From assembly GCF_006335115.1 (NCBI RefSeq), contig NZ_VDMJ01000024.1:182852-246851 (forward strand): a stretch of 64,000 nucleotides of DNA, written 5' to 3'. The notes under the pieces were generated by a model. It saw only the letters and a list, made by a program, of their open reading frames with translations. It searched no databases and had not been told where the DNA came from. Source of the stretch: Streptomyces sp. NP160 (GTDB lineage Bacteria; Actinomycetota; Actinomycetes; Actinomycetales; Quadrisphaeraceae). Shown piece after piece: positions 28,256 to 30,778 of this stretch (position 1 is the first letter of the stretch; each line of letters starts with the position of its first letter). The position numbers and the translations under genes are program-made.

Positions 28256-28320
28256 GACGACGGCGCGCCGCCGCCCAGCAACGCTCGCGCCTGCGGCAGC
28301 GTCTGACCGGTGATCGCCGC
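28256..28320. repeat. 65-base direct repeat, copy 1 (leader of lipoprotein A)
   Basis: Matches 29454-29518 at 59 of 65 positions by eye. It covers the sequence upstream of and including the GTG at 28310. The pair is best explained by a tandem duplication of leader plus gene. Confidence 0.75.
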
Positions 28321-29449
28321 CGCGGGTGGCGACCGGCGGAGGGCGGGGATCCGGGTGCGGCGTTCCAGGGCAGGGGCGGTCGGGCTGGCAGCGGGGGCGG
28401 TGCTCGCGGCGGCGCTCCTCACCGGCTGCGGAGGCGCCCCGCTGGCGGCAGAGTCGGGGCCGGAGATCAGCAGCGGGTCGTCGTCGTCGTCGCCTGAGCA
28501 GACCGCGCCGCTGTGGCCGGACCCGGCCCAGACGCTGGTGACCACGCCGAAGGGAGTCCGCCCCGCGGCGGAGCCGGTCGACGTGGTGGCGTTCCCCGAG
28601 ATCGAGTGGCTGGCGGAGGAGCGCGGGCTCACCCTCGAGCAGGCAGCGCAGGAGTTCCAGGACTCCCAGACCTACGGGCCCTGGTCCGAGCGCGCCAGGG
28701 CCCTGCTCGGCTCGCAGCTCTCCCAGGTCGCATGGCGCGATCCCGACGTCCCGGACGGGCGGCCGTACATCGCCTACCGCGGTGACCTGCCGCCGGAGCT
28801 GGTGACCCTGGCGGAGGAACTGCCGTTCCCGGTGGAGCTGCGGGGAGGCGCCGTCCTCACCGATGCCGAGCGCGAGCTGTTCCAGAACGCGGCTCTCGAG
28901 GCTTTCGAGGCCGACGTCGCTCCGCGGAACTGGGGCGGCGGTATGGATGCCCCCACCGGAGTGCTGCAGATCGACTACGTGGCTGAGGATGCGCGCAAGC
29001 GCGCCGACGACGCCACACGGCAACTGGTCATCGCCGCAGGGTCGGCCGCGGTCGGCCGTGAGGTACCGGTCACGGTGGAGTTCCTCACCGACGACCGCGA
29101 CCCCAAGACCACAGAGGCCGCTACCTGGTTCCTGCCGGCCGGATGGGTCGCTGACCCGTCAGCCACCAGCGTCGACGTGCTCGTCGAGGCCCAGGGGTGC
29201 ACCGGTGGGAAGGGAGCGGTGGGTCGCCTCGCGGACCCCGTCGTCGAGGTGACGCCGACGGAGGTGCGGATCTCCACCCCCGTCTACATCCTCAAGGACG
29301 GTCAGACCTGCCCCGGCCACCCGATGGCACCCCTGACCGTCGAGCTGGGCCAACCGCTGGGCGACCGGACGCTGGTCGACGTGAACGGCACCATCGACGA
29401 CGACACCGCCCCGCCCGGAGGCGGCGTGGTCATCCCGTCTGCCGGTTGA
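28310..29449 (+). CDS. Lipoprotein of unknown function (paralogue A)
   Basis: A 379-residue exported lipoprotein: basic N-terminus, hydrophobic core and lipobox LLTGC (Cys40), then a Ser/Glu linker. I do not recognise the family. Blocks shared with paralogue B are WPDPA-T-VTTP-G-RP, PFPVELRGGA, DDRDPKTTE, WFLPAG, DPSATSV and, near the C-terminus, VTPTEVRI and LGDRTLVDVNG. Two Cys (in QGCTGG and TCPGHP) are also conserved and could form a disulfide. GTG at 28310 has no Shine-Dalgarno but sits in the 65-base repeat. Confidence 0.8.
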   Translation: MIAAAGGDRRRAGIRVRRSRAGAVGLAAGAVLAAALLTGCGGAPLAAESGPEISSGSSSSSPEQTAPLWPDPAQTLVTTPKGVRPAAEPVDVVAFPEIEWLAEERGLTLEQAAQEFQDSQTYGPWSERARALLGSQLSQVAWRDPDVPDGRPYIAYRGDLPPELVTLAEELPFPVELRGGAVLTDAERELFQNAALEAFEADVAPRNWGGGMDAPTGVLQIDYVAEDARKRADDATRQLVIAAGSAAVGREVPVTVEFLTDDRDPKTTEAATWFLPAGWVADPSATSVDVLVEAQGCTGGKGAVGRLADPVVEVTPTEVRISTPVYILKDGQTCPGHPMAPLTVELGQPLGDRTLVDVNGTIDDDTAPPGGGVVIPSAG

Positions 29450-29453
29450 GGAC

Positions 29454-29518
29454 GACGACGGCGCACCACCGCCCTGCAACGCTCGCGCCTGCGGGAGCGT
29501 CTGACAGGTGATCACCGC
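29454..29518. repeat. 65-base direct repeat, copy 2 (leader of lipoprotein B)
   Basis: Second copy of the 28256-28320 sequence. It carries a perfect ACGCTC/GAGCGT dyad that is imperfect in copy 1, and a GGTGATCACC palindrome at the position of the copy-1 start codon. Confidence 0.75.
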
Positions 29519-29526
29519 GTCGGTCG

Positions 29527-30678
29527 GTGGTGCGGCGGTGGTGCGGCGGAGGCGGGGCGGACGTGGGGCGTTCCAGGGCACGAGCGGTCGGGTCGGCGGT
29601 GGTGTGCGCGGCGGCGCTGGGCACGGGGCTGGCCGGGTGCGCAGGTGCGGCTCAGCCGGGGCCTGCCGGCGGGGGAGCGTCGCGGTCGTCGTCCTCCTCA
29701 CCCAGCCCGCGCGCGACCTTCGCCTGGCCCGACCCCGCGCTGACGATCGTCACGACGCCGCGCGGCGAGCGCCCGCCCCTGGACCTCACGTGGGCGACCC
29801 CCGGGTCGCTGCAGGACCAGGTGGCGCAGGAGGAGGGCGTGTCGCTGGAGGAGGGCGCGCGGATCGTCCAGGACCAGGAGCTCATGGGCGTCTTCACCTA
29901 CGACGTCCAAGAGCGGTTCCTGGAGGCGTTCTCCACGTCCCACGCGGGTGACGAGACGTCGCAGGGCCGCCCCTGGGTCGCCTTCACCGGCACGGTGCCG
30001 CCAGAGGTCGTCGCGATGGCCGAGCAGCTGCCCTTCCCCGTCGAGCTGCGCGGCGGAGCCCTCGTCTCGGGCCACCGCAACGGCGTCGTCATCGACGCGG
30101 CGACGACGGCGTTCGCCGAGGACCTCGGGCTGGCCGAGCTGGGGCTGGTGCTGGGCGGCCACTTCGACGCGACCACCGGCGTGGTGACCATCGACTACTC
30201 CACGGACCTGCTGACCCGGCGCCCGGACGCCGGGACGGAGGAATCCGTCATCGCTGCGGCCCAGGGGGCCCTGGGGTGGGAGGCGCCCCTGTCGGTCCAC
30301 TTCCAGGCCGACGACCGCGACCCGAAGACCACCGAGCCCGCCGTCTGGTTCCTGCCCGCGGGCTTCGTACCCGACCCGTCCGCCACGAGCGTCACCGTGC
30401 TGGTCTACGAGCAGGGGTGCACCAGCGGCCAGGGCGCGGACGGCAACACGGCCCCACCGGAGGTCGACGTGACGCCGACGCAGGTGCGCATCGCCGTGTC
30501 GACGTACATCCGCAAGGGTGACCAGGGGTGCCCGAACCACCCGACGGCGCCGCTGGCCGTGGAGCTCGGGGAGCCGCTGGGAGACCGGCAGCTGGTGGAC
30601 GTCAACGGCCGCGTCGACGACGGCGTCGGCGAGGGCGTCGACCTGTGGGGCGACGTGCAGGTGCCGGCCGCCGGCTGA
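29527..30678 (+). CDS. Lipoprotein of unknown function (paralogue B)
   Basis: A ~383-residue lipoprotein with lipobox LAGC (Cys38 from this start), Ser-rich linker and the same conserved blocks as paralogue A, including PFPVELRGGA, DDRDPKTTE, WFLPAG, DPSATSV, QGCTSG and LGDRQLVDVNG. The position equivalent to the paralogue A start (GTG 29508) is out of frame because of a 10-base length difference, so the start has moved to 29527 or, giving a neater signal peptide, GTG 29563. It probably shares a transcript with paralogue A. Confidence 0.8.
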   Translation: MVRRWCGGGGADVGRSRARAVGSAVVCAAALGTGLAGCAGAAQPGPAGGGASRSSSSSPSPRATFAWPDPALTIVTTPRGERPPLDLTWATPGSLQDQVAQEEGVSLEEGARIVQDQELMGVFTYDVQERFLEAFSTSHAGDETSQGRPWVAFTGTVPPEVVAMAEQLPFPVELRGGALVSGHRNGVVIDAATTAFAEDLGLAELGLVLGGHFDATTGVVTIDYSTDLLTRRPDAGTEESVIAAAQGALGWEAPLSVHFQADDRDPKTTEPAVWFLPAGFVPDPSATSVTVLVYEQGCTSGQGADGNTAPPEVDVTPTQVRIAVSTYIRKGDQGCPNHPTAPLAVELGEPLGDRQLVDVNGRVDDGVGEGVDLWGDVQVPAAG

Positions 30679-30715: not shown

Positions 30716-30778
30716 CCAGCATGCAGAAGTCCGCCCGCACGGGCCCTGAGCCGGGAGGGGGCGAGTTCTGCATGCTGG
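30716..30778. terminator. Palindrome between lipoprotein B and fic
   Basis: CCAGCATGCAGAA (30716-30728) pairs perfectly with TTCTGCATGCTGG (30766-30778); the inner region pairs partly. It sits between converging genes and can terminate both. Confidence 0.6.

What the first reader, a model, noticed from the sequence alone, without database searches (positions are those of the whole stretch)
28256..30678. Tandem lipoprotein paralogues of unknown family with duplicated leaders
The two ~380-residue lipoproteins share many blocks and conserved Cys, and each is preceded by a 65-base leader (59 of 65 identical). In copy B the ancestral start is out of frame and translation must begin further in. I recognise no domain. 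Leaders are more alike than parts of the genes, which suggests that the leader is under selection or was duplicated or converted recently.
Basis: partly seen in the sequence, partly recalled or inferred. Interest (0 to 1): 0.65.

Follow-up and report, generated by a model that had tools for sequence, protein, structure and literature searches.

The report
Lipoproteins built like protease pro-regions
Two neighbouring bacterial surface lipoproteins carry a domain that looks like the detachable helper/inhibitor segment of a secreted protease but have no protease, and the near-identical stretch before each gene is best read as a stress-type promoter, not a random repeat.

Summary
In detail: two tandem lipoprotein genes (A 28355-29449, B 29563-30678; 49% identical proteins), each with the same leader (59/65). 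The genome is a Quadrisphaera; five other species of the genus have the family, in the same place between mscS and a Fic-type gene where checked. The leader is not a general repeat: only two full copies in the genome. It carries AAC-N17-CGTCT, the layout of Streptomyces sigma-E (ECF) promoters, in all 11 gene copies; the same motif precedes other lipoprotein genes (4 of 18 further sites, chance about 7e-9). The real start codon is the downstream GTG in both copies, so copy B is not odd. No sequence family matches, but the N-terminal domain hits pro-regions of chymotrypsin-like (S1) proteases by profile, and its AlphaFold model finds the alpha-lytic protease pro region first in the PDB. No protease domain follows; a small beta domain does. 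In related genomes each domain also sits on a membrane protein beside a SigE-family sigma factor. N and C domains have been swapped between paralogues. Best reading: envelope-stress lipoproteins that bind an extracytoplasmic S1 protease, as inhibitor or chaperone. Fold, promoter layout and swapping rest on data; protease binding is inferred.

The parts
28256..28277 (+). Conserved block upstream of the -35-like element, copy A
   Evidence: GACGACGGCGCG(C/G)CGCCGCCC(T)GC kept before most family genes of six species
28278..28307 (+). ECF-sigma-type promoter A: GCAACG (AAC 28280-28282), N17 after AAC, CGTCTGAC (CGTC 28300-28303)
   Evidence: same layout as sigma-E promoters in PMC6767563
28314..28332 (+). 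Possible 5'UTR hairpin A, covarying but weak
   Evidence: 86% of cells paired, 4 of 8 pairs with two-sided changes; single-sequence folds not better than shuffles
28355..29449 (+). Lipoprotein A; start GTG 28355 with GGAGGG at 28338-28343
   Evidence: start position conserved in 11 copies, upstream GTG not in frame in several
28427..28429 (+). Lipobox cysteine A (LTG-C)
   Evidence: sequence; invariant
28514..29092 (+). N-domain A: alpha-lytic-protease pro-region-like fold
29090..29113 (+). Conserved linker DDRDPKTT at the end of the pro-region-like fold
   Evidence: DDRDP.TT near-invariant
29114..29446 (+). C-domain A: small beta domain with two Cys and PLGDRTLVD motif
   Evidence: also in other actinobacterial lipoproteins; low-confidence beta model
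29454..29475 (+). Conserved block upstream of the -35-like element, copy B
29476..29505 (+). ECF-sigma-type promoter B: GCAACG, N16, CGTCTGAC (CGTC 29498-29501)
29512..29530 (+). Possible 5'UTR hairpin B
29563..30678 (+). Lipoprotein B; start GTG 29563 with GGAGG at 29548-29552
29638..29640 (+). Lipobox cysteine B (LAG-C)
   Evidence: sequence
29725..30305 (+). N-domain B (beta type)
30310..30675 (+). Linker and C-domain B

Best explanation
A and B are membrane-anchored extracytoplasmic lipoproteins of a two-domain family found so far only in Quadrisphaera. The leader of each gene is its own promoter for an ECF (sigma-E-like) sigma factor, so both genes should switch on with the same envelope-stress signal. 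The N-terminal domain has the fold of the pro region of alpha-lytic protease, without a protease attached. Pro regions of that fold bind their S1 protease, as folding helper and (established knowledge) as inhibitor, with the pro C-terminus in the active site. I therefore propose that these lipoproteins bind an S1 protease at the cell surface in trans, most likely as an inhibitor or regulator, with the near-invariant DDRDPxTT linker where the pro C-terminal tail would lie. Different N types (alpha, beta, gamma) would suit different partners, and the C domain, swapped between paralogues, would be a separate binding module. Supported by data: promoter-like motif and its lipoprotein association, start codons, pro-region homology, domain swapping. 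Inferred: sigma dependence, protease binding and its direction (inhibitor or chaperone).
For: Leader: AAC-N17-CGTC before all 11 copies; absent by chance in the window; the sigma-E table of S. coelicolor shows the same layout, e.g. GGCAACG...CGTCTT (PMC6767563); four of 18 non-family sites lie within 70 nt upstream of other lipoprotein genes, base rate 0.0012; the DUF4349 lipoprotein gene has a TGCAAC-N17/18-CGTC element just before its ATG in all six genomes. N-domain: a profile made only from Quadrisphaera lipoproteins hits the pro-region of a TAGHC/GDSGGP protease (L114, E 9e-11; Trypsin by Pfam) and of L097; with those added the profile finds more S1 proteases (L151, L152, L155, L158) and stand-alone lipoproteins. 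Model residues 30-222 mostly pLDDT 75-97; Foldseek ranks 1, 2, 4-8 are alpha-lytic pro region, prob up to 1.00; second look 3pro_D Z 7.8, rmsd 3.7, 147 of 152 residues. ECF link: in L110 the same N-domain is the outer part of a one-TM protein beside a SigE-family sigma gene; in L090 the C-domain likewise. Pro C-terminus across the active site in alpha-lytic protease: PMC2829044. Precedent for a stand-alone propeptide as inhibitor: SUB1-ProM (PMC6993865).
Against: No direct evidence of protease binding, lipidation or transcription start. The AlphaFold model rests on 5 sequences (pTM 0.58); Foldseek E is 1.2e-3 and Z 7.8 is below the level that excludes a common arrangement on its own. No PF02983 match. 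The only S1-like enzymes seen in the genus are HtrA/MarP types and a small S1-like lipoprotein without pro region, with no ECF motif upstream; no cognate alpha-lytic-type protease was found. The motif has few further sites, so the sigma factor was not identified.
Confidence: 0.45

Rival explanations
1. The pro-region fold has been turned into a sensor or feedback module of ECF signalling that no longer binds a protease; the lipoproteins tune an envelope-stress pathway, as the lipoprotein CseA influences sigma-E activity in Streptomyces.
For: Both domains occur on membrane proteins next to SigE-family sigma genes; the genes have ECF-type promoters and other lipoprotein genes share the motif; CseA precedent.
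Against: No sequence link to CseA was tested or seen; no sigma gene next to the pair; the pro-region homology itself points to proteases.
Confidence: 0.3
2. The lipoproteins are variable surface decoys or receptors (against foreign proteases, phage or predators), kept as ancient types and reshuffled.
For: Flanking genes are about 75-97% identical between species while A/B copies at the same place are 45-58%; alpha, beta and gamma N types are retained in different pairs and C-domains are swapped.
Against: Within alpha and beta types conservation is ordinary (74-88%); no partner known.
Confidence: 0.15
3. The leaders are alike only because of recent duplication or gene conversion.
For: 88% identity next to strongly diverged genes.
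Against: Own A/B 0.88 equals own A/G004A and own A/G001B; G001A/G001B is only 0.79 while own B/G001B is 0.91.
Confidence: 0.05
4. The leader is a structured regulatory RNA rather than a promoter.
For: A short 5'UTR helix shows some compensatory changes.
Against: No credible Rfam match; folds no better than shuffles; the most conserved part lies upstream of the expected start of transcription.
Confidence: 0.1

Closest known systems
Pro region of alpha-lytic protease (PDB 2pro, 3pro, 4pro; Pfam PF02983)
   Same: Predicted two-lobed alpha/beta fold over nearly the whole pro region; profile homology to pro-regions of actinobacterial S1 proteases
   Different: Lipid-anchored, no protease domain behind it, extra C-terminal beta domain, no PF02983 match
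Stand-alone propeptide-like inhibitors (e.g. SUB1-ProM, a subtilisin propeptide-like protein, PMC6993865)
   Same: A pro-domain fold encoded apart from a protease
   Different: Other protease and propeptide class; inhibition here untested
Sigma-E (ECF) regulon of Streptomyces coelicolor, including lipoproteins such as SCO4471 (PMC6767563)
   Same: AAC-N17-CGTC promoter layout, lipoprotein targets
   Different: Other genus; sigma factor not identified; the sigE-cseABC operon is reported as absent outside Streptomyces
DUF4349 lipoproteins
   Same: Carry the same kind of promoter element in all six Quadrisphaera genomes
   Different: Unrelated protein domain

Membership tests
Alpha-lytic protease pro region | Two-lobed alpha/beta pro-region fold | tested here: met
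   (predicted model; top hits 4pro, 3pro, 2pro; 147 of 152 residues aligned)
Alpha-lytic protease pro region | Match to Pfam PF02983 | tested here: not met
   no Pfam match in any of 8 members (one distant stand-alone relative, L115, E 0.065)
Alpha-lytic protease pro region | Sequence homology to pro-regions of S1 proteases | tested here: met
   (L114, L097)
Alpha-lytic protease pro region | Followed by an S1 catalytic domain | tested here: not met
   the remaining ~120 residues are a different beta domain
Alpha-lytic protease pro region | Catalyses folding of and inhibits its protease | not testable with these tools
   needs biochemistry
ECF sigma-E-type promoter | AAC and CGTC separated by 17-18 nt close upstream of the gene | tested here: met
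ECF sigma-E-type promoter | Transcription from this site depends on an ECF sigma factor | not testable with these tools
   no expression data
Bacterial lipoprotein | Signal peptide with lipobox and Cys | tested here: met
   n-region RRSRAG, hydrophobic stretch, L(T/A)GC, invariant Cys in all members; lipidation itself not testable
General genomic repeat | Leader found next to many unrelated genes | tested here: not met
   only two full copies in the genome

The most novel reading that the evidence does not exclude
Quadrisphaera uses detached, lipid-anchored pro regions as trans-acting regulators of an envelope S1 protease inside an ECF sigma circuit: the same domain serves as stress-induced lipoprotein and as sensor on the sigma-linked membrane protein, with specificities reshuffled by domain swapping.
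Probability: 0.15. Interest if true: 0.75.

Novelty: new variant of a known kind. Interest (0 to 1): 0.5.

Why it matters
Pro regions are normally cut off and destroyed after folding their own protease. A family in which the fold is kept as a permanent, stress-induced surface lipoprotein, and also as the outer domain of a sigma-factor-linked membrane protein, would point to proteases being controlled in trans at the actinobacterial envelope. It also gives a fold to proteins that no family database searched here names.

Tried and rejected
Pfam, NCBIfam, PHROGs and PDB by sequence: nothing significant over the domains. Rfam over the region: only chance miRNA hits. Sigma-70 promoter and terminator scan: none. 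C-domain fold: second model mean pLDDT 61.5, PDB matches not significant, weakly Ig/FNIII-like. Search of own sigma genes for the same promoter upstream: no clear autoregulated ECF, one AAC-N16-CGTC before L076. Weak own-genome hits L003 and L004 are chance (signal-peptide region of an unrelated lipoprotein, and an overlapping frame). The genus S1-like proteases that were read showed no pro region. Leaderless translation from GTG 28310 / 29508 rejected because its frame is not conserved. Papers on DUF4349 with sigma factors or on Quadrisphaera lipoproteins: none held.

Full report
What is there. The window lies in a Quadrisphaera genome (record titles of two genomes of its genus; window = G000:C104:182852-246851). 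Genes A and B are tandem, 49% identical, with leaders identical at 59 of 65 positions. Five further species carry the family; four of them as a tandem pair and one (G003) as one intact copy plus a distant copy with two apparent frameshifts. The copies sit in the same place between an mscS gene and a Fic/winged-helix gene (shown for G002 and G003). In 297 genomes of the order no other genus has the full two-domain protein.

The leader. Aligning all 11 intact copies shows a constant GCAACG-like element, a 17-base spacer after AAC, and CGTCT. Information per column is 2 bits at the two bases before AAC and at the bases flanking CGTC, and 0.6-1.3 bits in most of the first half of the spacer. AAC-N17-CGTC is the layout of sigma-E promoters in S. 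coelicolor, e.g. hrdD GGCAACCCTCAGGCGGTACGGGC-CGTCTT (PMC6767563). In six genomes the motif with up to one mismatch occurs 27 times: nine are family leaders, and four of the other 18 lie just upstream of other lipoprotein genes (own L033; the DUF4349 lipoprotein in G003 and G005; a PD40-repeat lipoprotein in G002), against a measured rate of 0.0012 for random positions (P 7e-9, or 1.3e-6 counting the orthologous pair once; the lipoprotein rule was widened once so that it would count L033, and with the stricter rule three of the four still passed). The DUF4349 gene keeps a TGCAAC-N17/18-CGTC element in all six genomes. So the leader reads as an ECF-type promoter. Which sigma factor uses it is unknown.

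Start codons. The GTG at the end of the leader (28310, 29508) is in frame in some copies and not in others, and absent in G005A. A second GTG, 48-61 nt after CGTC, with a purine-rich GGAGG-like site before it in most copies and the signal peptide behind it, is in frame in all. It is the likely start in both A and B.

Selection on the leader. A and B share 45% of silent third positions but 88% of the leader. Leaders of different species are as alike as leaders of one genome, so purifying selection explains the pattern better than recent conversion.

The protein. There is a lipobox, a serine-rich linker, an N-domain (about residues 54-246 of the precursor), the linker DDRDPxTT, and a C-domain with two cysteines. 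A profile made only from the lipoproteins' N-domains hits the region in front of a TAGHC/GDSGGP S1 protease (L114, E 9e-11) and L097. Stand-alone lipoproteins with the same domain occur in other actinobacteria (L115-L119; L153, L156; the profile includes two protease pro-regions, so its protease hits are not fully independent). The AlphaFold model is good for this domain and poor for the C-domain; Foldseek places the alpha-lytic protease pro region at ranks 1, 2 and 4-8, and a second aligner covers 147 of 152 residues of 3pro_D (Z 7.8), whereas the other rows of similar Z cover only about 70-80 residues. Z alone would not settle it; sequence and structure point the same way independently.

Wider setting. 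In Q. granulorum (L110) the N-domain is the outer part of a one-TM protein beside a SigE-family sigma gene (TIGR02983 just over its cut-off), and in L090 the C-domain ends a similar protein beside another SigE-family sigma gene. The C-domain alone is common in actinobacterial lipoproteins.

Evolution. N-domains fall into alpha, beta and gamma types; each genome with a pair holds two of the three. C-domain trees reject the alpha and beta N-clades (p-AU about 1e-5 each): G005B has a beta N-domain with an alpha-like C-domain, and G004A an alpha N-domain with a C-domain nearest own A. The domains have been exchanged between paralogues.

How it most likely works. Inferred: envelope stress activates an ECF sigma factor, both lipoproteins are made and anchored outside the membrane, and their pro-region-like domain binds an S1 protease, as inhibitor or folding helper. 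Binding has not been shown. The main rival is a sensor or feedback role within the ECF pathway without protease binding.

Noticed in passing
30723-30773: An inverted repeat TGCAGAAGTC...GAGTTCTGCA of total length 51 between B and the Fic-type gene. The same arms at a fixed total length of 51-52 with unrelated middles occur 3 times in this genome and 18, 5 and 2 times in three other Quadrisphaera genomes, none in the reversed-pattern control: a dispersed palindromic element of unknown nature.
   Followed up: partly
L110 (Q. granulorum G002:C19) and L090 (G072): SigE-family sigma genes next to one-TM proteins whose outer parts are the N-domain or the C-domain of this family.
   Followed up: partly
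L144 from 1198 (own genome C116:26200-26655 region); L142, L140, L145, L146, L149: A lipoprotein with an S1-protease-like domain (TNAHVV, GSSGS) and no pro region, in all six Quadrisphaera genomes: a candidate partner.
   Followed up: partly
L082 7700-9100 (Q. sp. INWT6): A distant extra copy of the family read in three frames: two apparent frameshifts, so a pseudogene or sequencing error.
   Followed up: no
28314-28332 and 29512-29530: A short 5'UTR helix with compensatory changes across species but no unusual stability.
   Followed up: partly
L033 938-1462 minus strand: Another lipoprotein of no known family (175 aa) directly behind the only other exact copy of the promoter motif in this genome.
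   Followed up: partly
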